Of a stretch of 58,311 bases of DNA, positions 5,467-44,859 are shown in pieces; the stretch's first letter is position 1; the number at the start of each line of letters is the position of its first letter. Origin of the DNA: a virus; the IMG/VR virus record IMGVR_UViG_3300003937_000059, positions 1 through 58,311 of that record, one strand, 5' to 3'. The translations under genes and the position numbers were made by a program. The notes beneath the pieces were generated by a model. That model was not told the origin of the DNA and did not search any database. It saw only the letters and a list, made by a program, of their open reading frames with translations.

Positions 5467-6033
5467 TTAAAGAGTAAAATCTTCAACAACTTCTTCTACA
5501 TTATCTGTAACTTCAACCACATCTTCTACTTCATCTACTTTCTCTTCAGATTCTAAACCAAATGCTTCAGCAGGCTTAACTTCTTTGTTAATCTTTGCTG
5601 TTGTAGCAGTTCCATTTGCTAATCTGATTTCTTCTCCGTTATCATGTGCTATCAATACATCTTCAACAGTTGCATCTGAACTATAAGATGTTTTCCTATA
5701 AATAGGTTCTCCATCTACTGAACAAACAACACCCGTTTGACCTGCCATTTTTAAATGTTGGTTAGGGTTTTCATTGTTAAATGGATTTAATTTCTCTGTG
5801 ATAACAATTCTACCTGATAATTTCTCACCGGCAGTCCATTCTAAAGCTTCTAATGCTTCTATTTTACCACCAATAATAGCACTTAATGGTACATAGTCAA
5901 CAAAGCTGTTAGAGTTAATCATAACTCTCTTTTGAGTTACTCTGATAAAGCCAAATTCTGGTTTGTTTTTAGATTGACGGACAACATTACCCATCTCATC
6001 CGCTTCAACGGTTACTTGATTTTTCTTTTGCAT
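5467..6033 (-). CDS. Probable single-stranded-DNA-binding-like protein
   Basis: 188 residues. The first 150 look beta-rich and hydrophilic, including a GRIVITEKLNPF strand and MAGQTGVVCSVDGEPIYRKT. The last 40 are almost wholly acidic with Val and end DFTL. An OB-like body with an acidic tail ending near an aromatic is the layout of bacterial SSB and of T7 gp2.5, which use the tail to recruit replication partners. Position among helicase, HNH and HTH genes fits replication. No OB-fold motif can be proved by eye, so the SSB call is an inference. Confidence 0.5.
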   Translation of the reverse strand: MQKKNQVTVEADEMGNVVRQSKNKPEFGFIRVTQKRVMINSNSFVDYVPLSAIIGGKIEALEALEWTAGEKLSGRIVITEKLNPFNNENPNQHLKMAGQTGVVCSVDGEPIYRKTSYSSDATVEDVLIAHDNGEEIRLANGTATTAKINKEVKPAEAFGLESEEKVDEVEDVVEVTDNVEEVVEDFTL

Positions 6034-6074
6034 TTTTAATAAAATTTAAGTGTGAATAAAATAATTGTTGATGA

Positions 6075-6344
6075 TTAGATATCATCTGAATGGAAATACG
6101 GATCATCTAATTTCTCAAAAGAAGTTACTTCATCCAATGCCGGTTCATTCTCAAGAATCATTTCATTCTCTACAAATGTTGGTACTGAATTGCGTTTATA
6201 ACTACTATTGTAAAATGGATCACCCACTTCCTTTGTATACGCTGAACTTAGACCATTAAGGTCATTATACTCATCATCTGAGAGAGATAAGTACTGTTCA
6301 ACTGAACATTCTATTATACGTCCATTAGGAAGTTGTATTATCAT
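6075..6344 (-). CDS. Hypothetical acidic protein
   Basis: 89 residues, starting MIIQLPNGRIIECSVEQYLS and continuing with Asp/Glu-rich, Tyr-containing sequence to the C-terminus. The first 40 residues could form a small beta-alpha unit; the rest is probably disordered. No catalytic motif, cysteine cluster or membrane segment is seen. It lies 41 nt upstream of the SSB-like gene on the same strand and probably belongs to the same transcript. Family not recognised. Confidence 0.68.
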   Translation of the reverse strand: MIIQLPNGRIIECSVEQYLSLSDDEYNDLNGLSSAYTKEVGDPFYNSSYKRNSVPTFVENEMILENEPALDEVTSFEKLDDPYFHSDDI

Positions 6345-11478: not shown

Positions 11479-11495
11479 CCATATAAAATAAAAAG

Positions 11496-11828
11496 ATGAG
11501 TACAATATTACAAGACATGATGGGCATGTTAAGAAGAAAAGAAGTAGTTACCCCAAAAGCAGAAGACTACGTTACAATTGCTAGATTTGCAAATGTTCAA
11601 GAAAGGTTAAAACCTCAACCTAAAGTAATAACAGAATTAGTTACACTAGCTTTGTTAAAATCATTTACTGATCAAAAGTTAAAAGATATATCAGGACTTG
11701 GTGTACCAGCCTATGAAGATGATGGAGCAGCAGGAGCTGCAGGACTTCAAAAGGGAAGTTTATGGCAAACAGATGGAACAGGAGATGCACCATTAAATGC
11801 AGCAGGGATCTTAATGATTAAACAATAG
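11496..11828 (+). CDS. Hypothetical structural protein
   Basis: 110 residues. The first half is helical; the C-terminal segment GLQKGSLWQTDGTGDAPLNA then GILMIKQ is a short beta motif (G-L-x-x-G-x-L-W/Y-x-t-x-G-x-L-x-i) common at the end of phage head-decoration and fibre proteins. A similar ending occurs in the 65-residue protein at 24474. It sits between two basic proteins of the late operon. A minor virion protein is likely; no specific role is clear. Confidence 0.65.
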   Translation: MSTILQDMMGMLRRKEVVTPKAEDYVTIARFANVQERLKPQPKVITELVTLALLKSFTDQKLKDISGLGVPAYEDDGAAGAAGLQKGSLWQTDGTGDAPLNAAGILMIKQ

Positions 11829-32052: not shown

Positions 32053-35000
32053 ATGGCAATAAACTTCTTAAATAATCAGTCAGTAACAGGTACTTTAAGT
32101 GTGTCTTCTATATCTAATGATAATTCTTCTTATACAGGTATACTGGTTTGGGACGGAGGTAATCTTAAATATAGAACTAAATCACAAATAAGATCAGATA
32201 TAGGTGCGGGAACAGGAAGTGGATCTGTTACTAGCATTGCAATTTCTAATGGGGGTGGTATAGGTGTTAGTGGATCTCCTATAACAAGTAATGGTACAAT
32301 TACTTTAACTAATACAGATAAAGGATCAAGTCAAAATATATTTAAGAATTTTGCAGTTAGTGGACAAAGTACTGTAGTAGCTGATTCTAATAATGATACA
32401 TTAACATTGGTTGCAGCTGGTGGTATGACTATTACTACAAGTGGTGATACTATAACTTTAAACTCAGCTAATGATAATGATAATCACTATTTAACTAGTT
32501 TAAGTTTTAATACAAGCAATGGTATACTTACTGCAGCAAGAAATGGTCTGTCTTCTCTTACAGTAGATCTTGATGGTAGATATGTAGAAGTAGCAGGTGA
32601 TACAATGACTGGTGACCTAGTGATGGATGATAATAGTGGATCATCACCTAGTATATATTTTTATAATCAAGCAAATAATTATGCTAGATTACTAATGGAT
32701 ACTAGTGATCAATTTTTAATAAAAATAGGTAGTACAAATGAGATGACTATGTCATCAACAGCAACTACTTTTGATTCATCTGTAACAGCTCAATCATTGG
32801 TATTAAGTAGTGCATCTGATGCTATGATTACTCTTAATCAAACAGGTACTAATCCAGAATGGAGCTATATAAACTTTCAATCAGACAATGTAAGAAATTA
32901 TTATGTTGGACAAGATTCAAGTAAAAACTTTAATATATATAATGATAATTTAGATATTGTATCAATATCTGTAAAATATGCTAATAATACTATTAACTTT
33001 GGTGGTAATATTGTTTTAGAAGGAACAGGTAGAATACAAGGTATAGATACTGTATCATCCGGTACAGATGCAGCAAATAAAACTTATGTAGATAATGCTG
33101 TATCAGGATCAGGTTCTATGTCTTCATGGACTCTAACGGCAGATAGTGGAGGAAGTGAAAACATTTCAAACGGAGAAAGTGTAGACATAGCTGGAGGAAC
33201 TAATATTACAACAGCACGAAGTGGAGCTACTGTTACTATAACTAATGGTATTACCAACTTAAACCAATTAACAAATGGTCCTGGATTTACAACTTTTGCA
33301 GAGCCAGGAATATTTTCTGGAGGTGGTACACCAACTTTAGCAAGTGGAGTAACTGCAGCTGAAATAAGAAGTCTTATTGGTGCAGGTACTAGTTCAAGCT
33401 CAGGTGTAACCAGTGTTGCTACATCAGGATCAGTAAATGGTTTAACATTAACAGGCGGAACTATTACAGGAGTTGGTACTATAACTTTAGGTGGAACACT
33501 TACAATAAATAATGGAGATTGGTCAGGCACTGATTTAGCTGTTGCTAACGGAGGAACAGGAGCAAGCAATGCATCAGATGCAAGAAGCAACCTGGGGGTT
33601 GTAAATGATACAGGTACGCCTGCTATATTAAGTAATGGTAGTACACCTTCATTAAACTCAGGAATTTCAGCAGCAGAGGTAAGATCATTGATAGGTGCTG
33701 GTACAAGTTCTAGTTCTGGTGTTACATCAGTAAGTAGTGGTAACTCTAATACAATTACTGTAGGAGGAACAGCAACAGCACCAACAGTATCAGCTAATAC
33801 AGGTGCTGTAAGTGGTAGTTCATCAAACTTAGCAACTGGAGCACAAATACAAACAGCTATTAATACAGCTATAACAGGAGTTTTATCATTCCAAGGAACC
33901 TGGAATGCATCTTCAAACTCACCAACATTAACAAGTGGATCAGGTACACCAGGATATTATTATATTGTGGAAACTGCAGGATCTACTAACCTAGATGGCA
34001 TAACAGATTGGGCCGTAGGAGATTGGGCAGTATTTTCTGATTTAGCAACAGATGCTTGGCAGAAGATAGATAATTCCCAAGTTGGTAATGTAACAGGTTC
34101 AGGAGCTAATACCAGAATACCAATATGGAATAGTTCTTCAAACTTAACTTCAGATAGTGGTTTAACATTTAATACATCAACAAATCTTTTAACAGTAGGT
34201 GGTCAAGTAAATTGGTCAGGTGGTCATTCTGGAGAATCTAATTCTGCTTATGATAACATGATTACTGCATTCAGTGATTCAGGTTCTTCTACAATAACAT
34301 TAACGCTTACACAACAAGATGGTGGTACTTTAACTACATCATTTAGTAATCCACAAGGAACTACAACTCCAAGTAATACACAAACATTTACAAACAAATC
34401 AGGTAATATATCACAGTGGACTAATGACTCATCTTATATAACTTCAAGTTCTGTAGCTATTATAAATGGTAGTGGTACACCAAGTTTAGGCTCAGGTATT
34501 ACAGCTGCTGAAATAAGATCTTTGATAGGAGCAGGTACTGGAAGTGGTACAATGACAGGTTTTGGAGTATCAAATGCTGTTGGTGGTTCTTCATTTACTA
34601 TTAGTAATGGAGAAACAGTAAGTATAGTTGGAGGTACAAATATTCAATCAGTATTAAATTCAAGTGATGAAAGTATTACATTAAATTATAATGGTCCTTT
34701 ACCAGCTATAACAACAGATGGATCTACGCCTTCTTTAGCTAGTGGTATAACAGCTGCTGAGGTTAGAACTTTAATAGGTGCAGGAACTGGTGGTGGCTCA
34801 ATGAGTTCTTGGACAATAAAAGAAGGTAATGGTACGGAGTCAACTTCTGTGACTAATGGAGAAACATTTACTATTGCTCAGGGTACCGGTATTGAATCTG
34901 AGTTGACATCAACAAGTAGTGGTGGAACAATTACAATAACTAATACAGCACCTGACACGGGTACACCAGCAATATTATCAAATGGATCTACACCGTCTCT

Positions 35001-36555
35001 TAACTCAGGTATTAGTGCAGCAGAAGTACGTTCATTAATTGGGGCTGGAACAAGCTCAACATCAGGTACAGTAACTGAAGTATCTGGTGAAGGAACAGTA
35101 AATGGACTAACATTAACTGGAACTGGAACAGGAGCTGTTACTTTAACTCTTGGTGGATCTTTATCAATAAATAACTCAGATTGGGATGGTACTGACTTAT
35201 CTGTTGCAAATGGTGGTACTGGAGCTTCAAATGCTGCTGATGCAAGAACAAATTTAGGAGTTGTAAATGACACTGGAACACCAGCTATTTTATCTAATGG
35301 TTCTTCTCCAAGTTTAAATAGTGGAATAAGTGCTGCTGAGATTAGAAGTTTGATTGGAGCTGGTACAAGTTCAACAAATAACTATTTAAGTTCAGTATCA
35401 TTTGCTACTGGAACTGGTGTTCTTACATTAAATAGAAGTGGTCTTAGTGCATTAACTGTAGATTTAGACGGTAGATATTTAGAGCTTACTGGTGGTACAA
35501 TGGATGGTGATGTTATATTTCCAGATAATATAAAAGCACTATTTGGTACCGGTAGTGATATGGAAATGTATTATGATGGTAGTAAAGGTATTATAGATAA
35601 TAGATTAGGAGCAATGCAAATACGTTCTGCTGGTGAGCTTTCTTTAATGAAAAGTTCTTCAGAAACTATGGCAACATTTGCACCTGATGGTGCAGTAACT
35701 TTAAATTATGATAATGCTCTTAAGTTTGAAACTAAAAGTGATGGTGCAAAAGTAACAGGAAATTTAACAGTAACAGGTAGTATTTCTGGAACTATGAGTG
35801 GTTACTTGGCACTTGCTGGTGGTACAATGACTGGTACTACAAACCACGGTGATAATGTACAATCAATTTGGGGAGCTTCTTCAGATTTACGTATTTATCA
35901 TAGTAATACACAAAATAATGGTATAATACAAGATAGTAGTGCTAATGGATTAGAAATATATGCTACAACTGATGTTATAACTGGCAACTTACAAGTTTCA
36001 GGTAGTGAGATAGACTTTGAATCATCTACTAATTTATTATTAGGAAATGGTACACAAATAGAGGTAGATGGAGATCCTGGTTCAAGTGGACAATATTTAA
36101 AATCAATGGGGAATGGTAATGGTGTACAATGGGCCAGTCTTCCATCTAGTACTACTACTCAAACTATATTGTTTTGTAATTTTTCAGATGACACTAGTAC
36201 AACTTCTGGCTTAAGGATACCTTTTAATAGTTTAAATGAAACAACATCAAATCAATACTATAATCATTTTGATTGTCCATCAAGTGGAACTATAAAAAGA
36301 ATTAGATTAAATAATACTAGTGGATCAGCAAGTACTAGTTTTTCAATTATATTTGATATATGGAGAAGTGCTAGTGGTACACCAACACAATCATCAGGCT
36401 CAATAAGTGTTGCATCAGGTGGTGTAGTGGAATATGATCCTAACCTTTCTTTTTCAAAAGGTGATGAAATACAAATTGCTTATAGAAAAAGTGCTACTAG
36501 TAAATATCTTAGAGGAGTAAGTGCATCAATAATTATAGAATTTACAAAAATATAA
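32053..36555 (+). CDS. Giant repeat-containing tail fibre, 1500 aa
   Basis: A very long Gly/Ser/Thr-rich fibre. Six copies of a block ending SGIxAAExRSLIGAGT start at residues 426, 531, 809, 892, 980 and 1085, separated by variable beta segments. Later parts include the fibre motif ALFGTGSDMEMYYDGSKGI (about 1163) and LTVTGSISGTMSG. The last 130 residues (after TTTQTILFCNFSDDTSTTSG) form a distinct C-terminal head domain, presumably the receptor-binding tip. Trimeric beta-fibre is expected. The stop overlaps the next start (TAATG). Repeats could recombine to vary length. Confidence 0.85.
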   Translation: MAINFLNNQSVTGTLSVSSISNDNSSYTGILVWDGGNLKYRTKSQIRSDIGAGTGSGSVTSIAISNGGGIGVSGSPITSNGTITLTNTDKGSSQNIFKNFAVSGQSTVVADSNNDTLTLVAAGGMTITTSGDTITLNSANDNDNHYLTSLSFNTSNGILTAARNGLSSLTVDLDGRYVEVAGDTMTGDLVMDDNSGSSPSIYFYNQANNYARLLMDTSDQFLIKIGSTNEMTMSSTATTFDSSVTAQSLVLSSASDAMITLNQTGTNPEWSYINFQSDNVRNYYVGQDSSKNFNIYNDNLDIVSISVKYANNTINFGGNIVLEGTGRIQGIDTVSSGTDAANKTYVDNAVSGSGSMSSWTLTADSGGSENISNGESVDIAGGTNITTARSGATVTITNGITNLNQLTNGPGFTTFAEPGIFSGGGTPTLASGVTAAEIRSLIGAGTSSSSGVTSVATSGSVNGLTLTGGTITGVGTITLGGTLTINNGDWSGTDLAVANGGTGASNASDARSNLGVVNDTGTPAILSNGSTPSLNSGISAAEVRSLIGAGTSSSSGVTSVSSGNSNTITVGGTATAPTVSANTGAVSGSSSNLATGAQIQTAINTAITGVLSFQGTWNASSNSPTLTSGSGTPGYYYIVETAGSTNLDGITDWAVGDWAVFSDLATDAWQKIDNSQVGNVTGSGANTRIPIWNSSSNLTSDSGLTFNTSTNLLTVGGQVNWSGGHSGESNSAYDNMITAFSDSGSSTITLTLTQQDGGTLTTSFSNPQGTTTPSNTQTFTNKSGNISQWTNDSSYITSSSVAIINGSGTPSLGSGITAAEIRSLIGAGTGSGTMTGFGVSNAVGGSSFTISNGETVSIVGGTNIQSVLNSSDESITLNYNGPLPAITTDGSTPSLASGITAAEVRTLIGAGTGGGSMSSWTIKEGNGTESTSVTNGETFTIAQGTGIESELTSTSSGGTITITNTAPDTGTPAILSNGSTPSLNSGISAAEVRSLIGAGTSSTSGTVTEVSGEGTVNGLTLTGTGTGAVTLTLGGSLSINNSDWDGTDLSVANGGTGASNAADARTNLGVVNDTGTPAILSNGSSPSLNSGISAAEIRSLIGAGTSSTNNYLSSVSFATGTGVLTLNRSGLSALTVDLDGRYLELTGGTMDGDVIFPDNIKALFGTGSDMEMYYDGSKGIIDNRLGAMQIRSAGELSLMKSSSETMATFAPDGAVTLNYDNALKFETKSDGAKVTGNLTVTGSISGTMSGYLALAGGTMTGTTNHGDNVQSIWGASSDLRIYHSNTQNNGIIQDSSANGLEIYATTDVITGNLQVSGSEIDFESSTNLLLGNGTQIEVDGDPGSSGQYLKSMGNGNGVQWASLPSSTTTQTILFCNFSDDTSTTSGLRIPFNSLNETTSNQYYNHFDCPSSGTIKRIRLNNTSGSASTSFSIIFDIWRSASGTPTQSSGSISVASGGVVEYDPNLSFSKGDEIQIAYRKSATSKYLRGVSASIIIEFTKI
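33328..35370 (+). repeat. Six-copy protein-coding repeat in the giant fibre
   Basis: Units start at 33328, 33643, 34477, 34726, 34990 and 35305. Each encodes about 22 residues of the form TP-S-L-x-SGIxAAExRSLIGAGT followed by Gly/Ser-rich linker. The protein sequence is much better conserved than the DNA, so the copies are old or under protein-level selection rather than recent duplication. Confidence 0.8.
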
Positions 36556-37061
36556 TGGCAAATATAAATGATAACATAAGAGGAAAGAAACTATTCAAAT
36601 CAGGCACCTCTAAACAAAGGGCAGTTAAAGGTAGTGATGGTGAAATAACTGTATCTAGTGAAGTAGCTAGTGATTTAGCTGCTTTAACAGATATGAGTGA
36701 TCTATTTAATGATGATGGTTTATATCAGTATAATAGATTTTTAATAAAACAAATAGAAGACCTAAGAGAAGACGTAGAGGAATTACATGCATTTATAAAA
36801 TCTGCATTTGGAAAAGATTCTTCAGCTGCTAGTTCAAAAGGAGCTAAAGGTGATACTGGTGCACAAGGACCTAAAGGTGACACAGGAGCTACAGGAGCAA
36901 CTGGACCACAAGGAGCAACTGGAGCTACGGGAGCACAAGGTGCAGCTGGTAGCAATGCTTCTGTAAGTGGTTATGAAGGTGGTCAAACTGTAGTTGTAAA
37001 CTCTAAAGGTGGTACGGTTACACTTAATTTTGAAGACGGATTATTAAAATCAATAAAATAA
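36555..37061 (+). CDS. Collagen-like virion protein
   Basis: 168 residues. After a helical N-terminal region (RFLIKQIEDLREDVEELHAF, about 61-80), residues 96-134 are 13 uninterrupted Gly-X-Y triplets (GAKGDTGAQGPKGDTGAT then more), followed by a beta-rich C-terminal knob with VVVNSKGGTVTLNFEDG. Collagen-like stretches with a coiled-coil trimeriser are known in phage fibres. It is coupled to the giant fibre gene and probably assembles with it. Confidence 0.85.
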   Translation: MANINDNIRGKKLFKSGTSKQRAVKGSDGEITVSSEVASDLAALTDMSDLFNDDGLYQYNRFLIKQIEDLREDVEELHAFIKSAFGKDSSAASSKGAKGDTGAQGPKGDTGATGATGPQGATGATGAQGAAGSNASVSGYEGGQTVVVNSKGGTVTLNFEDGLLKSIK

Positions 37062-37064
37062 TAT

Positions 37065-37565
37065 ATGGATTTTAAAAGTTTTTGGAATGAGTATGAAGAT
37101 AACTTAGAAGGTGAAGTAAAAAATGTAAATGGTTCTTTTATTTTTATTCCATTTATGTATGGATTAGATGATACTATATATAAAAAATATATAAAAGAAC
37201 TCTTAAAATTAGACTGGTTACATCATAAGTTATATGTAGTTGGTGGTATACTAGAAGGTTGGCCAACAACAGATATAGATATATGTGTTACTGGTAAAGC
37301 TGATCATAGAACTAGAGAGTTGATGTTACAGGCTAGAGCTATGGGACCTTTTGATATGTACTGGGTTAAAACTTATGATAAAATATTTAAAGGTAAAGAC
37401 AATGGTATAGAAGTTTGGGAGTTTGCTAAAGCACATGATAGGTGGACTAAATATGGTAAACAGTGGAATGGTAAATGGAAGAAAAACGGGTTGTTTCATA
37501 TGTCTGGTTTGTTTGAACCAAAAGAAGGTAGAGAATATACAAAAGATGCACAACAAATAAATTAA
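37065..37565 (+). CDS. Nucleotidyltransferase-like protein
   Basis: 166 residues. LYVVGGILEGWPTTDIDICV (about 56-75) fits the minimal nucleotidyltransferase motif: Gly60-Gly61, then Thr, Asp70-Ile-Asp72, with the beta-strand before. Such folds transfer nucleotides to RNA or proteins, or, if inactive, only bind them. The C-terminal part (HDRWTKYGKQWNGKWKKNGL) is basic. Its place among fibre genes is unexpected. It could be a moron, a virion enzyme, or an inactive structural derivative. Confidence 0.68.
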   Translation: MDFKSFWNEYEDNLEGEVKNVNGSFIFIPFMYGLDDTIYKKYIKELLKLDWLHHKLYVVGGILEGWPTTDIDICVTGKADHRTRELMLQARAMGPFDMYWVKTYDKIFKGKDNGIEVWEFAKAHDRWTKYGKQWNGKWKKNGLFHMSGLFEPKEGREYTKDAQQIN

Positions 37566-37567
37566 CA

Positions 37568-38011
37568 ATGAAAAAGAAAAAAAAAGTAATTAAAAAAACT
37601 ACTAGCAAAAAAGCAGTAGAAAAAAAACCAGCTGTTAAAAAAGCAGTTGTTAAAAAACCATTGGATGTACAACCTAAAGTAAAGTATACTTGGGAGATAG
37701 TATCTATAGATGCTTATGATCATCCAGATAATGGTAAAGGTCTTATAAATCAAATAGTATATGAACTTATAGGTACCATAGTTAAAGACTCTATTAAGAG
37801 AACTGCATCTACAACAGGTGCAATAGCTGTACACTATGATATTAAAAATAAATTTTCTACTACAGATTATAAACAATTTACAAAAGCACAGATATTAAGC
37901 TATGTACAAAAAAATGTAAAACAACAACATTTAGAAGCTATGATAAGTATAGTAGATGGGGAATTATTTTCAACAAAAAAAACTGTAACAGAATTTTCTT
38001 GGAATAAATAA
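37568..38011 (+). CDS. Protein with Lys-rich N-terminus
   Basis: 147 residues. Residues 1-35 are almost all Lys with Ala/Val/Pro/Thr (MKKKKKVIKKTTSKKAVEKK), a histone-like tail. The rest is a compact alpha/beta domain (YTWEIVSIDAYDHPDNGKGL then INQIVYELIG). The basic tail suggests contact with nucleic acid or an acidic surface, for example in the particle. It begins two bases after the nucleotidyltransferase-like gene, so the two may cooperate. Family not recognised. Confidence 0.68.
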   Translation: MKKKKKVIKKTTSKKAVEKKPAVKKAVVKKPLDVQPKVKYTWEIVSIDAYDHPDNGKGLINQIVYELIGTIVKDSIKRTASTTGAIAVHYDIKNKFSTTDYKQFTKAQILSYVQKNVKQQHLEAMISIVDGELFSTKKTVTEFSWNK

Positions 38012-38046: not shown

Positions 38047-38322
38047 ATGGCAAAATCAAAAAAACCTGCAAAAGCAAAAGTAGCTAAAAAATTATCAGAA
38101 GAAGAATTAGAAAACATAAGAGAGCTTCAGGCTAAGCTTCAAAATGTTGTAATGAATTTAGGCTCTGCTGAATTAGCTAAACAAACAATAGTAAAAGAAC
38201 ATTCTAATTTAAATAATGAATGGAAGACTTTTACAGCTGATCTTGAAAAAAAATATGGTCAGGTAAATGTAAGTCTTGAAGATGGTACATTAACACCTCT
38301 TGAAAGTTCAGAAGACAAATAA
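38047..38322 (+). CDS. Coiled-coil protein, possible fibre chaperone
   Basis: 91 residues: a basic Ala/Lys N-terminus, then a long predicted coiled coil (LSEEELENIRELQAKLQNVV up to about residue 75) and a short acidic end. Short coiled-coil proteins among fibre genes can serve as fibre-assembly chaperones, as T4 gp57A does; this is an analogy from position and size. It is followed by a long A/T hairpin and a late promoter-like motif. Confidence 0.62.
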   Translation: MAKSKKPAKAKVAKKLSEEELENIRELQAKLQNVVMNLGSAELAKQTIVKEHSNLNNEWKTFTADLEKKYGQVNVSLEDGTLTPLESSEDK

Positions 38323-38347
38323 TTTACTAAAATCATAAATCTTAACA

Positions 38348-38392
38348 AAAAATTTTTAAGAGCAGACTTCTTGTTTGCTTTTAAAAATTTTT
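38348..38392 (+). terminator. Long A/T hairpin between units
   Basis: A 17-base arm (38348-38364: A5, T5, AAGAGCA) pairs with its complement (38376-38392) with a single G-T wobble; the loop is 11 nt. The 3' arm ends in TTTTT and runs directly into the promoter-like motif at 38390, so termination and re-initiation overlap. Confidence 0.65.
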
Positions 38393-38401
38393 GTATATTA
38401 T
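38390..38401 (+). promoter_or_regulatory. Late promoter-like motif TTTGTATATTAT
   Basis: An exact copy of the motif, 47 nt ahead of the 38448 start, with the preceding terminator arm. Confidence 0.55.
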
Positions 38402-38447: not shown

Positions 38448-40676
38448 ATGATCCCAACAAATTCAAGTGGTAGCACAAACGGATGTGACAACATTTCTTC
38501 TAATTGTGTAATATGGCAAGGACCTGATATTTCCTGTATTAATTTATGCAGTGGAGATACAATTAGTGAAGTTACAGCAAAGCTTGCTACAAAGGTATGT
38601 GATCTTATTACTAATGGTGTAAGTGCAAATCCAAGTTTAGCAGGATTAGATCTTACATGTTTAAATATACGTGGTACAACACCAACAACTTTAGTTCCTG
38701 TATTACAGGCTATGGTTACTGAAATTTGTGCTAATAATAGCGGGAGTAATTTACCATCTAGTACATATGTAACTGACAATCTTCCTATAATGACATTACC
38801 TGCATGCATGCAATATAATGATGCATCAGGAAACCCAGTAACACAATTACGTTTAGATTTATTTGCAACACTTATAGCAGATCAAGTATGTACAAATTTA
38901 TCAAGTATACAACTTATAAATAGTACTTTAACTAGCTACAGTAGTAGATTAGATGTTTTAGAAGCATGTGTATTACCATGTTCAGGTGCTGTATCAGAAG
39001 TACAGATTGTACCAACTTGTGTAAGTAATGTAGGTACCTTAACAAATGTATCTGTAGTAGTATTAGCACTTGAGAGTGCTTTTTGTGCTTTAAGAAATGC
39101 AGTGGGTTTACCAGCAGCAATTAACGCTGCTGTTGCACAAAGTGTTATTACTGGAAGTTATGCTTCATTAAGTTCTAGTGCAACTTATGGTGCTATAACA
39201 GGATGGAATAATTCTGCAAGCACTTTAGCACAGAGTGTACAAAATGCATGGGTAGTTATAGATGATATGTATGCTGCTATAAGTTCAATACAAACTAATT
39301 GTTGTCCAAGTGGTTGTAGTGCAGTAACATTTGGATATTCTACAACAAATAGAATCAATAGTTCATCCAATTTAATTGATGGAATAATATTTGATTTTCA
39401 ATCTTCTTCTATACCTAGTAACTTTAATGATACATCAGGGTATAGTATAATAACATTAACAGATGCATTAGGTGCATCATTACAAACAACCGTTAGTGTA
39501 TCTCAACTACAAAATTCATCAAGTGGATATATTTTTCCAACTCAAACATTAAATACTTCTCAAAACATATCTGTACAAGTAGATTTTAGTGTAACAGATG
39601 GAGTAGATACTTGTGAGGCAAACCAAAGTAGTGTGGTAGCAGGTTTAATACCTTGTCCACCATCAATAACAATTAGCGGTATAACACAAACAAACGTGAC
39701 AGTAAGCTTTGCTAATACATTAGGAACCACTGCAACATACGTAATAGATATTTTAAATGCAAGTGGAGTAGTTGTGGCAACACAAACAATTAATAATCCA
39801 GCTGCTTCTGTAAGTCATCAATTTACTTCCGGTTTAACAGCTAACACAACATATGATGCTAGGATAACAGTATCATTTAAAGGAGTATCAGGTCAAATAT
39901 GTCCTAATACACAAGCATTTACTATGCAAGCTGTTGCACAAGCATGTAGTGCAGGTATGGATGTAGCAATAGTACTTGATTATACTTCAACTATGGGTAC
40001 TGAAATAGGAACTCTACAATCTGGTATAGCTGCAGTTATAGGTACTATAGATAATAACTCTGGATCTAATCCATATAGAATGGCATTAGTAACAGCAGAT
40101 GAAGCACAAGGTACTACAGCAACCCCTACATATAATACATCAAGTGATTATGTTGCATTACCTGCAGCACAAAGAATTATAAATACTGGAGGAGGACACA
40201 GACAATTCATAACAGCATGGTCAATGTTTGGAAATGATAATGGTACTGCATTTACTAATCAGTTAAATAAACTTAATACTGGAGCACCTACATCAGGTGT
40301 ACCATTAGGACAAGGAGACGGATCTCCAGATCCAACTGATATGGCAATCCAACAAATAATGACAGGTAACTTTGTAGGTGCATTTAGAAGTAATGTGGCT
40401 AAATTTATAGTTGTAATAACAGATGATCTACCAAGTGGATCAGATGATGCATTTGATGCAACTGATTATGCACAAATTGGTACTTTAACAACAATTGCTT
40501 TACTTCAAGGAATTAAAATAATTGTAGTTGGAGCAGGAACAAGTAAAACATATACTCCACCAGGTGCTTCAACAGTATATCCTTGGAGAGAGTTAGCAGT
40601 AAATACTGGAGGTAGTTGGAATGTATCTGAAGGTCCTGCAGTTATACAAAATGAATTAATAGCAGGTTGCTCATAA
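38448..40676 (+). CDS. Structural adhesin with FnIII and C-terminal vWA domain
   Basis: 742 residues. The N-terminal third is Cys-containing (NCVIWQGPDISCINLCSGDT) and recalls a conserved crAss-like tail or fibre protein. Around 400-490 a fibronectin type III-like domain is seen (SITISGITQTNVTVSFANTL). From about 497 a von Willebrand A domain follows: DVAIVLDYTSTMG (505-517), with a near-MIDAS motif DYTST where DxSxS is usual, and alternating strands to the C-terminus. vWA domains bind proteins or sugars, often with a metal ion. A host-surface adhesin is likely. Confidence 0.78.
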   Translation: MIPTNSSGSTNGCDNISSNCVIWQGPDISCINLCSGDTISEVTAKLATKVCDLITNGVSANPSLAGLDLTCLNIRGTTPTTLVPVLQAMVTEICANNSGSNLPSSTYVTDNLPIMTLPACMQYNDASGNPVTQLRLDLFATLIADQVCTNLSSIQLINSTLTSYSSRLDVLEACVLPCSGAVSEVQIVPTCVSNVGTLTNVSVVVLALESAFCALRNAVGLPAAINAAVAQSVITGSYASLSSSATYGAITGWNNSASTLAQSVQNAWVVIDDMYAAISSIQTNCCPSGCSAVTFGYSTTNRINSSSNLIDGIIFDFQSSSIPSNFNDTSGYSIITLTDALGASLQTTVSVSQLQNSSSGYIFPTQTLNTSQNISVQVDFSVTDGVDTCEANQSSVVAGLIPCPPSITISGITQTNVTVSFANTLGTTATYVIDILNASGVVVATQTINNPAASVSHQFTSGLTANTTYDARITVSFKGVSGQICPNTQAFTMQAVAQACSAGMDVAIVLDYTSTMGTEIGTLQSGIAAVIGTIDNNSGSNPYRMALVTADEAQGTTATPTYNTSSDYVALPAAQRIINTGGGHRQFITAWSMFGNDNGTAFTNQLNKLNTGAPTSGVPLGQGDGSPDPTDMAIQQIMTGNFVGAFRSNVAKFIVVITDDLPSGSDDAFDATDYAQIGTLTTIALLQGIKIIVVGAGTSKTYTPPGASTVYPWRELAVNTGGSWNVSEGPAVIQNELIAGCS

Positions 40677-40694: not shown

Positions 40695-41255
40695 ATGGCA
40701 TGTAATTGTACAAAATGTAGTGAAAAATGTAGCTGTGCTGATACAGCTTTGACTAATCCATGTACGTATACAGATTGTAGTACAGGAAGTGAAAGGTGTG
40801 ATGATGTTCAGTGTGCTGCGTGTGTAAGTTATTGTGGTACATCATTTCAAATTGGCCCAGCTGGTGGACAGATAGTAATTACTTCTGGTACTAGATTAGA
40901 TCAGATAATTCAAAAACTTTGTCTATTACAAATAAATGGTAATGGGGCTTGTTCATCTAATGATTTAGCACATAATCCTTATAATCAATATGCAGGGGTG
41001 GTAACTAGTTCTTCCATAAATGTACTGTGGGATGGTATATGGAGTTCTAGTAATGGTATTAATATATATATTGATACACAAATTAATCCTTCAGGATGGA
41101 CGTTAGTAAACGCTGCTCCAATAGCAACAACTATTTCAAACTATACAATAACTAATTTAACTGCTAGTACAGCTTACAAAATTAAGATACAAGATTCACA
41201 AATAGGTGGAGCATGTGTACCTATTGAATTGTTAGTTTCTACTATAGCAGCATAA
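40695..41255 (+). CDS. Cys-rich protein with fibronectin-like end
   Basis: 186 residues. The first 50 hold 13 cysteines in short spacing (MACNCTKCSEKCSCADTALT then CTYTDCSTGSERC), a disulphide- or metal-rich knob. The C-terminal half is beta-rich and resembles an FnIII domain (INVLWDGIWSSSNGINIYID then TISNYTITNLTASTAYKIKI). It closes the fibre/adhesin block ahead of a strong terminator. Probably a small surface protein of the tail. Whether the Cys are oxidised or bind metal is unknown. Confidence 0.7.
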   Translation: MACNCTKCSEKCSCADTALTNPCTYTDCSTGSERCDDVQCAACVSYCGTSFQIGPAGGQIVITSGTRLDQIIQKLCLLQINGNGACSSNDLAHNPYNQYAGVVTSSSINVLWDGIWSSSNGINIYIDTQINPSGWTLVNAAPIATTISNYTITNLTASTAYKIKIQDSQIGGACVPIELLVSTIAA

Positions 41256-42647: not shown

Positions 42648-43214
42648 ATGATTAATAATTTTAAAAAACCCAATTTAAAAGCTCCAAGGTATAGAGAAAA
42701 AAGATTAGGGTTATTAAATGGAGAAACAATAAAAGAATTTAAAGAGAAAAAACCTTTATATTCTGATATAGATAATAAGAAATTAAAAAGTATAATTAAG
42801 TTATACAATATAGAGTTATGGAAGGCTGTTGTTAAAAATAGAGATGGTGTAGAATTACCTGATTCATTAGGATATTTATTTATAGGTACATGTCCTTCAT
42901 CAAAATCAGTTAATACAAATTATGCTCTTTCTAATCAATACGGTAAAGTCTTACAAAATAAAAATTGGGAAACTGATGGTAACTTAGGTAAAATATTTTA
43001 TACCAATTGGTCAACCAAATATAGATTTAAAAATAGGGATCTATGGAGATTTGTAGCATGCAGAGATTTTAAAAGAACTGTAGCTAAAGAATATCCTGCA
43101 AATTGGACCAAGTATGTAGTTATGAAAAATAAATACAGAGTGGCTCATTTATATGATCACAATGCTGATAAGAATAAAGAAGAGTTAAAGCATTATAATG
43201 AATTTGAAAAGTAA
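42648..43214 (+). CDS. Conserved crAss-like hypothetical protein
   Basis: 188 residues, basic. It begins MINNFKKPNLKAPRYREKRL and contains LYNIELWKAVVKNRDGVELP and LGYLFIGTCPSSKSVNTNYA. I recall this start (K-P-x-L-x-A-P-R) and the N-R-D-G-V-E-L-P motif in a protein common to crAss-like and related Bacteroidota phages, with no known function. It stands ahead of the ring and muzzle genes, so a tail-assembly or virion role is likely. Confidence 0.75.
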   Translation: MINNFKKPNLKAPRYREKRLGLLNGETIKEFKEKKPLYSDIDNKKLKSIIKLYNIELWKAVVKNRDGVELPDSLGYLFIGTCPSSKSVNTNYALSNQYGKVLQNKNWETDGNLGKIFYTNWSTKYRFKNRDLWRFVACRDFKRTVAKEYPANWTKYVVMKNKYRVAHLYDHNADKNKEELKHYNEFEK

Positions 43215-43219
43215 ATAAT

Positions 43220-43891
43220 ATGTCAAAAATATCAGAAGCAATATCTAGAATCAGAGGTCAAGTAAAAGCAGAAGTACAAGATGCATTTGTAACTGATAGA
43301 TATATATACAGCCTAATAGAGAAGTACGCTCAAGTATTAATGAGAAGACAAGATTATGCCAATAAACTAATGAAATTTAATTCAGTTTGGAAAACATTAC
43401 CATATATTGAATTAATTGATGTAGATAAAGTAGAGGCACACTGTGCAGGTATAACAAGTGGATGTACAATCAAAAGATCTAAAAAGAAACTACCTTCTAT
43501 GTTTGAAGGATACTGGGGACCTCTAATACGTACTGTAAGCTCTATAGATGGATCAAAAGAACTTCAAGCTACTCAGCCGGGTACTTTTACTTCTATGACT
43601 AAAACTACAACTTTTAAATATAATAAAACATTATATTTTTGGTGGTTAGATGGTTATATATATGCACCAAATATTGAATGGGATGCTTTAAAATTAGAAG
43701 GAGTATTTGATTCAGATATAACTAATTGGGACTGTGATGATACAAATAACTGTATACCTAGGTATGATCAAGAAATATATATACCTGAAGCATTATTTGC
43801 AGAAATAGAAGCTCAAGTAATACAGACTATGATGAATACTATGCAAGTTCCGCCAGAGGATTCTGATAATAAAATAAATATTAATAGATAA
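43220..43891 (+). CDS. Tail ring/connector protein
   Basis: 223 residues. The N-terminal helices (MSKISEAISRIRGQVKAEVQ and KYAQVLMRRQDYANKLMKFN) and then a beta-rich part (PYIELIDVDKVEAHCAGITS) are those of the ring proteins that sit below the crAss portal. It is coupled to the next ring gene (TAATG). It probably forms a twelve-fold or six-fold ring between portal and muzzle. Assignment to a particular numbered ring is not attempted. Confidence 0.78.
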   Translation: MSKISEAISRIRGQVKAEVQDAFVTDRYIYSLIEKYAQVLMRRQDYANKLMKFNSVWKTLPYIELIDVDKVEAHCAGITSGCTIKRSKKKLPSMFEGYWGPLIRTVSSIDGSKELQATQPGTFTSMTKTTTFKYNKTLYFWWLDGYIYAPNIEWDALKLEGVFDSDITNWDCDDTNNCIPRYDQEIYIPEALFAEIEAQVIQTMMNTMQVPPEDSDNKININR

Positions 43892-44859
43892 TGGGAGTAT
43901 CACAAAAATATAGAACATTCAGTCAATTAATGGAAGATGTTTCCATTGATTTTTCAACCTATGCATTGGAAGGAATGATTGAGCCACAGCAATTAATTAA
44001 AGTTGCTCAAAGAGTTAATTATGATTTAGGTTTAAGAATTCACAGAACTAAGCAGGTCATAATTGATATAGAACATGGTAGAGGGCAATTACCTATGGAT
44101 TTCAAATATATAAATTATGCATTTAGATGTGGCAGCTATACAGTTAATGCAACAATGCCATCTGGTACACATATTGAAACATTTAATGAAGTACCTTATG
44201 TTCCTTCTCCTGGAGAAATGTCACCATGCAGTAAAGATGACACCTGTAAAGATGTATGTGTTATTAAAACTTGTGATGATAAAAACAGTTACCAGTTAGT
44301 TCAAAGAGTAGGACCACATCAATACAGACAATTTGATAGTTGGACTCAATTAAGAATTCAAGATGTAAATGATGCTGTTTGTTTTTGTCCTACATTAGGT
44401 GCACAAGCATTAGATATAGCTGAAGTTAGAGATGGATTTTTAGTTACAACATTTAGAACAGGAAAAGTTTATATAAGTTATCAGGGTGCTATGGAAGATG
44501 CATATGGAGATTTATTAGTATTAGATCATCCTTATTGTAATGAATATTATGAATATGCAGTTAAAGAAAGAATACTTGAAAATATGGTATGGAACGGTGA
44601 GAACGTTTCTCAGCAATTAAATTTAGTATCACAGAAACTAAGAGGAGCAAGAAACAATGCATTAACATTTGTTAATACACCAAACTTTGCAGAAATGAGA
44701 AAAATGTGGGAAGTAAATAGAAGAGCACAATATCATAACTATTATAATATGTTCTTGAGCTATGCTCCTAATAATCCAGTTGCTCCTTTGCCAGAAAAAT
44801 TTACTGTAAATCCTAATGACTCTACAACAAGTCAATCATCAACCAGTGCAACCTGTTAA
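43891..44859 (+). CDS. Second tail ring/tubular protein
   Basis: 322 residues. MGVSQKYRTFSQLMEDVSID starts a helical domain, then RGQLPMDFKYINYAFRCGSY opens a beta domain of the type found in P22 gp4- or T7 gp11-like tail tubular proteins. A Cys-rich loop (MSPCSKDDTCKDVCVIKTCD, about 110-129) is a local insertion. The end is Pro/Ser/Thr-rich. It follows its partner ring gene with an overlap and precedes the muzzle gene. Confidence 0.78.
   Translation: MGVSQKYRTFSQLMEDVSIDFSTYALEGMIEPQQLIKVAQRVNYDLGLRIHRTKQVIIDIEHGRGQLPMDFKYINYAFRCGSYTVNATMPSGTHIETFNEVPYVPSPGEMSPCSKDDTCKDVCVIKTCDDKNSYQLVQRVGPHQYRQFDSWTQLRIQDVNDAVCFCPTLGAQALDIAEVRDGFLVTTFRTGKVYISYQGAMEDAYGDLLVLDHPYCNEYYEYAVKERILENMVWNGENVSQQLNLVSQKLRGARNNALTFVNTPNFAEMRKMWEVNRRAQYHNYYNMFLSYAPNNPVAPLPEKFTVNPNDSTTSQSSTSATC

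What the first reader, a model, noticed from the sequence alone, without database searches (positions are those of the whole stretch)
37065..38011. Nucleotidyltransferase-like protein paired with a Lys-tailed protein inside the fibre block
The GG...TDIDI motif protein and a protein with a 35-residue Lys tail are two bases apart, among adhesin genes. Such a two-gene pair in a structural region looks like a moron, possibly an antitoxin/toxin-like or RNA-modifying module. The pairing is seen; the function is inference.
Basis: partly seen in the sequence, partly recalled or inferred. Interest (0 to 1): 0.5.

Follow-up and report, generated by a model that had tools for sequence, protein, structure and literature searches.

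The report
Enzyme gene tied to fibre tip
A small virus gene that looks like a nucleotide-adding enzyme is almost always found with one particular kind of tail-fibre tip, usually right behind it, which suggests that the enzyme serves that tip rather than pairing with the lysine-rich protein beside it.

Summary
Both genes are real: NT (37065-37565, 166 aa) and a DUF7936 protein (37568-38011, 147 aa), two bases apart. They are not a unit. NT is a nucleotidyltransferase by profile, by a confident model and by three carboxylates (D70, D72, D/E97) kept in 48 of 48 distinct relatives. It is an accessory gene: 2 of 78 loci chosen by a neighbouring gene carry it, while at least 30 of those 78 keep the DUF7936 gene. 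DUF7936 is a fibre-linked family, near tail-fibre genes in 5 of 5 named phages examined.

The new finding is NT's real partner: the C-terminal ~105 residues of the long fibre (fct). In 53 of 60 loci NT lies -1 to 12 bases behind the fibre or its collagen-like partner. Of 50 collinear records, the same 2 hold NT and fct; 48 hold neither. In two phages NT sits next to the ribonucleotide reductase gene, while the fct fibre lies about 29-37 kb away without it. NT and fct diverge together (r 0.82 against 0.50 for NT and terminase).

I infer an enzyme dedicated to that tip, most likely modifying it; no activity was measured. Against: weaker fct variants lack NT, one in a 112-kb contig. Counter-defence and receptor masking remain open.

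The parts
32053..36555 (+). long tail-fibre gene, 1500 aa, whose C-terminal domain (fct) is the partner of NT
   Evidence: ORF; homologous fibre ends lie just upstream of NT in 53 of 60 loci, directly or through the collagen-like gene
36238..36552 (+). fct: C-terminal ~105 residues of the fibre
   Evidence: alignment A4; co-occurs with NT in cis and in trans
36555..37061 (+). collagen-like fibre partner, 168 aa
   Evidence: Pfam Collagen E 2.3e-6; PHROG tail protein E 9e-14
37065..37565 (+). NT: nucleotidyltransferase-like protein, 166 aa; D70, D72 and D97 are the likely metal-binding carboxylates
   Evidence: profile match to URT1 in the PDB at E 8e-4; model pLDDT 85.8; conservation in 48 distinct sequences
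37568..38011 (+). DUF7936 protein, 147 aa, with a Lys-rich N-terminus; a fibre-linked regional gene, not a partner specific to NT
   Evidence: PF25590, 36.9 bits; kept at the site without NT in many relatives; named-phage relatives near tail-fibre genes
38047..38322 (+). 91-aa gene p91, conserved next gene of the block
38345..38394 (+). strong intrinsic terminator closing the fibre - collagen - NT - DUF7936 - p91 run
   Evidence: 20-pair stem with T tail; fold z-score -6.9

Best explanation
NT is a catalytically competent nucleotidyltransferase of the DNA polymerase beta superfamily that serves one type of tail-fibre tip. Shown by computation: the fold class, the conserved active-site carboxylates, its accessory status, its position right behind fibres that end in the fct domain, co-divergence with fct, and two phages in which NT and the fct fibre lie far apart. 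Inferred: NT acts on or for the fct tip, most likely by transferring a nucleoside monophosphate from NTP to the tip (or to a factor needed to assemble it) while late proteins are made, so a phage that takes up this tip needs the enzyme too. The neighbouring DUF7936 protein is a general fibre-block protein and not its partner.
For: Fold and active site: profile A2 finds URT1 (7xs4, 6l3f) at E 8e-4 and 8.7e-4 and a minimal nucleotidyltransferase (1ylq) at E 0.27, three of the four PDB rows up to E 10; 16 of 20 members match Pfam NTP_transf_2, all weakly, best E 0.0056; the second model has pLDDT 85.8 and pTM 0.84; the structural second look is headed by AadA (Z 5.5), MNT antitoxin 8xeo (Z 5.4) and HI0073 (Z 5.0), though a de novo design (7bqc) also appears at Z 4.4; D70 and D72 in 48 of 48, residue 97 D in 47 and E in 1. 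Coupling: 53 of 60 loci have NT -1 to 12 bases behind fibre or collagen partner; among 218 loci, 53 of 62 with NT show fct, the nine others being seven outside the fibre block and two (L007, L019) whose contigs begin in the collagen gene, and 3 of 156 without NT show fct; searching with fct of the type without a collagen gene, 24 of 24 loci with a strong match and readable flank have NT next (one more ends at its contig end); 50 collinear records chosen by another gene: NT in 2, fct in the same 2 (Fisher P 8e-4). Trans cases: G001, NT 40705-41196 + and fct 11479-11793 -; G004, NT 5641-6126 + and fct 42892-43227 -, and the G001 fibre block runs fct fibre - collagen - 6 bases - DUF7936 without NT. 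Co-divergence: NT-fct distances r 0.75 over 44 pairs; on the same loci NT-fct 0.79, 0.83 and 0.82 against NT-p91 0.50 (31 loci), NT-groES 0.48 (26) and NT-terminase 0.50 (25); partial r 0.79 given terminase.
Against: No activity or modified tip was measured. Neither Pfam curated cut-off (15.2 against 21 bits) nor any NCBIfam model is met, and no Foldseek match reaches E 0.001. fct occurs without NT: L143 (E 4.5e-26), L168 and L169 (E 7e-13) have none in records of 21, 53 and 24 kb; L245-L250 (E 5e-12 to 1e-19) have none in records of 12 to 112 kb, three of which do hold nrdA; 12 further loci with strong fct and no adjacent NT lie on fragments of 4-30 kb where a distant NT could not be seen. 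Cases found in the two fct searches are largely the contigs already found with NT, and the fct profiles were built from NT-linked fibres, so the tallies are not independent. No fct residue is conserved only where NT is present, so no acceptor site is indicated. In cis, linkage alone makes two genes diverge together; only the trans cases (two) break it.
Confidence: 0.4

Rival explanations
1. Counter-defence. NT disarms a host defence that senses this fibre tip, or is found in the hosts this tip reaches, for example by adenylylating a HEPN ribonuclease as MntA does to HepT.
For: NT-fold antitoxins AMPylate HEPN toxins (PMC7641770, passages), and a HEPN defence triggered by phage tail proteins exists (Tha, PMC11087260, passages). 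MNT antitoxins are among the nearest folds. A gene co-expressed with the trigger, or moved to another site, would show the same linkage.
Against: No PADLOC match; the motif is GGx8DxD rather than GSx10DxD. A near-obligatory link (24 of 24 for the A6 type) is tighter than I would expect of a counter-defence gene.
Confidence: 0.25
2. Receptor masking. NT adds a nucleotide to a cytoplasmic sugar or glycan precursor, altering the receptor that this tip binds, so that progeny do not adsorb to dying cells or the infected cell resists superinfection, as T5 Llp does for its receptor by other means.
For: A receptor-binding gene beside a cognate receptor-blocking gene is known: T5 oad-llp and BF23 hrs-llp (PMC4728585, passages). 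AadA-like enzymes, the top structural rows, adenylylate sugars (fold; activity recalled).
Against: NT starts 3 bases behind the late fibre run, with no better promoter signal than shuffled sequence, so it is probably made late, when the surface is already built. No signal peptide is seen (by eye).
Confidence: 0.15
3. Linked by descent only. NT is a neutral or generally useful gene that happens to ride on a recombining tip segment.
For: Adjacent genes co-diverge through linkage; nearly all co-occurrences are in cis.
Against: The equally near gene on the other side, p91, is less correlated with NT (0.50 against 0.79, 31 loci); two phages keep both parts apart, and their NT and fct types correspond (Spearman 0.55 and 0.38 over 43 others).
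Confidence: 0.13
4. Two-gene toxin-antitoxin or RNA-modifying module of NT with the Lys-rich protein.
For: The genes are two bases apart and NT has the superfamily fold.
Against: Each occurs without the other in many relatives; the second protein is DUF7936, found near tail-fibre genes in 5 of 5 named phages looked at.
Confidence: 0.03

Closest known systems
HEPN/MNT (HepT/MntA) antitoxin nucleotidyltransferases
   Same: small Pol-beta-type nucleotidyltransferase with GG/GS and DxD; 8xeo and 8xeh among the nearest structures
   Different: GGx8DxD in place of GSx10DxD; a C-terminal extension; no HEPN partner; partner is a fibre tip
AadA / AAD(9) aminoglycoside adenylyltransferases, URT1, CCA-adding enzymes, DNA polymerase beta
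   Same: same superfamily fold by model and weak profile matches
   Different: lacks their further domains; 11-28% identity in the structural rows
T5 oad-llp receptor-binding / receptor-blocking module
   Same: a specific host-recognition protein with a small cognate gene next to it, exchanged as a module (PMC4728585, passages)
   Different: Llp is a lipoprotein that binds the receptor; NT looks like a cytoplasmic enzyme
Tail-fibre assembly chaperones (T4 gp38, lambda Tfa; recalled)
   Same: gene directly behind the fibre gene and specific to its C-terminal part
   Different: NT has a conserved active site; no similarity to those chaperones was seen in Pfam or PHROGs
DUF7936 (PF25590, phrog_7802)
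   Same: the second protein passes the Pfam cut-off
   Different: carries a Lys-rich N-terminal extension; the shorter relatives L006, L008 and L013 lack it

Membership tests
Pol-beta-type nucleotidyltransferase superfamily | GG or GS followed by DxD, plus a third carboxylate on the next strand | tested here: met
   G60 G61 and D70, D72 in 48 of 48; residue 97 D 47, E 1; strands 71-76 and 96-100 in the model carry them. That residue 97 is the third carboxylate is inferred from the model's strand order
Pol-beta-type nucleotidyltransferase superfamily | superfamily fold | tested here: inconclusive
   the top 15 structural rows are nucleotidyltransferases, but Z is at most 5.5 and no Foldseek match reaches E 0.001
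Pol-beta-type nucleotidyltransferase superfamily | nucleotide transfer activity | not testable with these tools
   needs an assay
Pfam NTP_transf_2 (PF01909) | score above the curated cut-off | tested here: not met
   15.2 bits against 21; 16 of 20 members match, best E 0.0056
MntA antitoxin of HEPN/MNT | GSx10DxD motif | tested here: not met
   GGx8DxD in 48 of 48; a loose G[SG]x10DxD pattern occurs in 7 of 48, register not checked; motif from PMC7641770
MntA antitoxin of HEPN/MNT | adjacent HEPN gene with RX4HXY | tested here: not met
   the only window ORF of 60 aa or more with the pattern is 43891-44859, about 6 kb away
DUF7936 (PF25590), second protein | score above the curated cut-off | tested here: met
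   36.9 bits against 27
T5 Llp-like receptor blocker | lipoprotein signal peptide | tested here: not met
   NT begins MDFKSFWNEYEDN, no signal seen by eye; no predictor was run
Tail-fibre assembly chaperone | needed for folding of the tip | not testable with these tools
   needs co-expression

The most novel reading that the evidence does not exclude
A phage tail-fibre tip that becomes functional only after covalent nucleotidylylation by its own dedicated enzyme, the two being exchanged between unrelated phage backgrounds as a tip-plus-enzyme cassette and able to work when encoded apart.
Probability: 0.22. Interest if true: 0.85.

Novelty: new variant of a known kind. Interest (0 to 1): 0.55.

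Why it matters
If NT acts on the tip, phage adhesins would have a post-translational maturation step not described in the papers I could search, and fibre swaps between phages could fail without the matching enzyme. If it is a counter-defence gene instead, the linkage points to a host defence that senses a specific fibre tip. Either way it names a testable partner for an unannotated enzyme family and moves the question away from the two-gene pair.

Tried and rejected
Toxin-antitoxin pair with the Lys-rich protein: rejected on gene distribution, PADLOC and motifs. Host-derived gene: 1 of 299 genomes of the family of G049 has it, G049 itself, where it lies on a phage-like contig (L040); the three genome-collection hits are binned contigs labelled Winogradskyella, Woesearchaeota and Maricaulis and do not fix a host. 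Named phages: NT, the window's DUF7936 protein and two fct queries have no tblastn match in 50,697 records. The first structure model (10 rows) was poor (pLDDT 57) and was replaced. A tip residue conserved only with NT was sought and not found. fct has no PDB relative (best E 1); its Pfam search was not completed. No structure was predicted for DUF7936 (both jobs used on NT). Papers: no hit for DUF7936 or for tail fiber with nucleotidylylation; listings only; passages read in PMC11087260, PMC7641770, PMC4728585 and PMC11990801. T4 gp38, lambda Tfa and the activity of AadA are recalled.

Full report
What is there. The window is one viral record of 58,311 bases, a distant relative of crAss-like phages: its portal protein matches Leptolyngbya phage Lbo-JY46 at 33% and Cellulophaga phages phi17:2 and phi4:1 at 27% identity. 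The run at the finding is: fibre 32053-36555, collagen-like protein 36555-37061, NT 37065-37565, DUF7936 protein 37568-38011, p91 38047-38322, then a strong terminator at about 38345-38394.

NT is a nucleotidyltransferase by several weak lines that agree. Pfam NTP_transf_2 matches 16 of 20 members below the cut-off. A profile of 20 members finds Arabidopsis URT1 in the PDB at E 8e-4. A model from 37 sequences has mean pLDDT 85.8, and its structural rows are headed by AadA, MNT antitoxins, HI0073 and other nucleotidyltransferases, at modest Z of 5.5 or less. Foldseek gives no match at E 0.001. D70 and D72 are invariant in 48 distinct sequences and residue 97 is D in 47 and E in one. I infer that these three carboxylates bind metal.

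NT and the Lys-rich protein are not a pair. Loci found through the VWA-domain neighbour (38448-40676), a choice blind to NT, have NT in 2 of 78 (one is the contig of L002, near-identical to the window; the other that of L011), and a BLAST hit to the window's DUF7936 protein in 30 of 78. L079 shows the empty site: fibre stop, 4 bases, DUF7936 start. Of 80 loci found through a terminase, 0 have NT, though some are short. DUF7936 has relatives in 29 phage records. In the five regions opened it lies near tail-fibre genes: 6 to 57 bases behind a fibre or tail structural gene in three (CRP-7, S-B28, S-CRES2), about 540 bases behind in S-CBP3, and in the fibre block of phage immuto.

NT's partner is the fibre tip. 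In 60 loci with NT (the window and near-duplicates included) NT lies -1 to 12 bases behind a fibre gene (39) or its collagen-like partner (14), in 53 of 60. Six of the seven others lie next to nrdA (L003, L004, L018, L021, L043, L044), and L012 is unclear. The downstream background differs: VWA/exonuclease in 5, GroES-terminase in 37, GroEL in 6, nrd in 6, other in 6 of 60. What stays the same at the fibre site is the last ~105 residues of the fibre, fct.

Tests of the coupling. (1) Of 218 loci, 62 hold NT; 53 of these show fct, and the nine others are seven outside the fibre block and two (L007, L019) whose contigs start in the collagen gene; 3 of the 156 without NT show fct. (2) Searching with fct alone: of 31 loci found with the A6 type, 25 match strongly, 24 have NT next and one (L258) ends at its contig end; the six weak ones have none. 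Of 28 found with the A5 type, 7 have NT next; of the 21 others, L226 and L241 have NT elsewhere in the record, 12 lie on 4-30 kb fragments without NT, six (L245-L250) are weaker and lack it in 12-112 kb records, and L251 was not searched further. Most of these contigs are the ones already found with NT. (3) Fifty collinear records out of the 78, searched whole: NT in 2, fct in the same 2. (4) In G001 and G004 NT and fct are about 29 and 37 kb apart on opposite strands, and the fibre block of G001 runs straight from collagen gene to DUF7936. (5) NT-fct distances correlate at 0.75 (44 pairs); on matched sets at 0.79-0.83, against 0.48-0.50 for NT with p91, GroES or terminase; partial r 0.79 given terminase.

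Reading. The simplest account is an enzyme that the fct tip needs, supplied with it by a recombining cassette and able to act when encoded elsewhere. Co-transcription with the fibre, with a terminator behind p91 and no promoter signal above chance, suggests late expression, which fits tip maturation or a counter to a tail-sensing defence better than receptor masking. Transfer of a nucleoside monophosphate to the tip is my choice, but no acceptor residue stands out, and the counter-defence reading is a serious rival: HEPN effectors are AMPylated by MNT antitoxins (PMC7641770), and a HEPN defence is triggered by tail proteins (PMC11087260).

Limits. All data are sequence data, nearly all from metagenomes; hosts are unknown. 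The fct profile was made from NT-linked fibres. Only two trans cases are known. Weak fct relatives lack NT, one in a 112-kb contig that holds nrdA, so the link, if real, concerns the closer tip types.

Noticed in passing
L003, L004, L018, L021, L043, L044: NT lies directly upstream of the ribonucleotide reductase large-subunit gene, with small unrelated ORFs between the small-subunit gene and NT.
   Followed up: partly
window 38345-38394: Strong intrinsic terminator with a 20-pair stem (fold z-score -6.9) behind p91.
   Followed up: yes
window 38448-40676: 742-aa protein with a weak VWA match; 351 related stretches in viral contigs but no match in 50,697 phage records.
   Followed up: no
window 43891-44859: 322-aa ORF with an RX4HXY pattern (RRAQYHNY) near its C-terminus; no PHROG match.
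   Followed up: no
L038 2593-4155 and L057 3385-3984: Phage-encoded GroEL (E 2e-133) and GroES-like (E 3e-21) genes behind the fibre block of relatives.
   Followed up: no
model of NT against the viral structure library: One unnamed viral protein, A0A516ML51 (192 aa), matches the NT model with Foldseek probability 0.99 at E 5e-3.
   Followed up: no
L114 3940-5535: Two further genes resembling the short DUF7936-type proteins, besides the Lys-rich one, near one fibre gene, suggesting duplication of this family.
   Followed up: no
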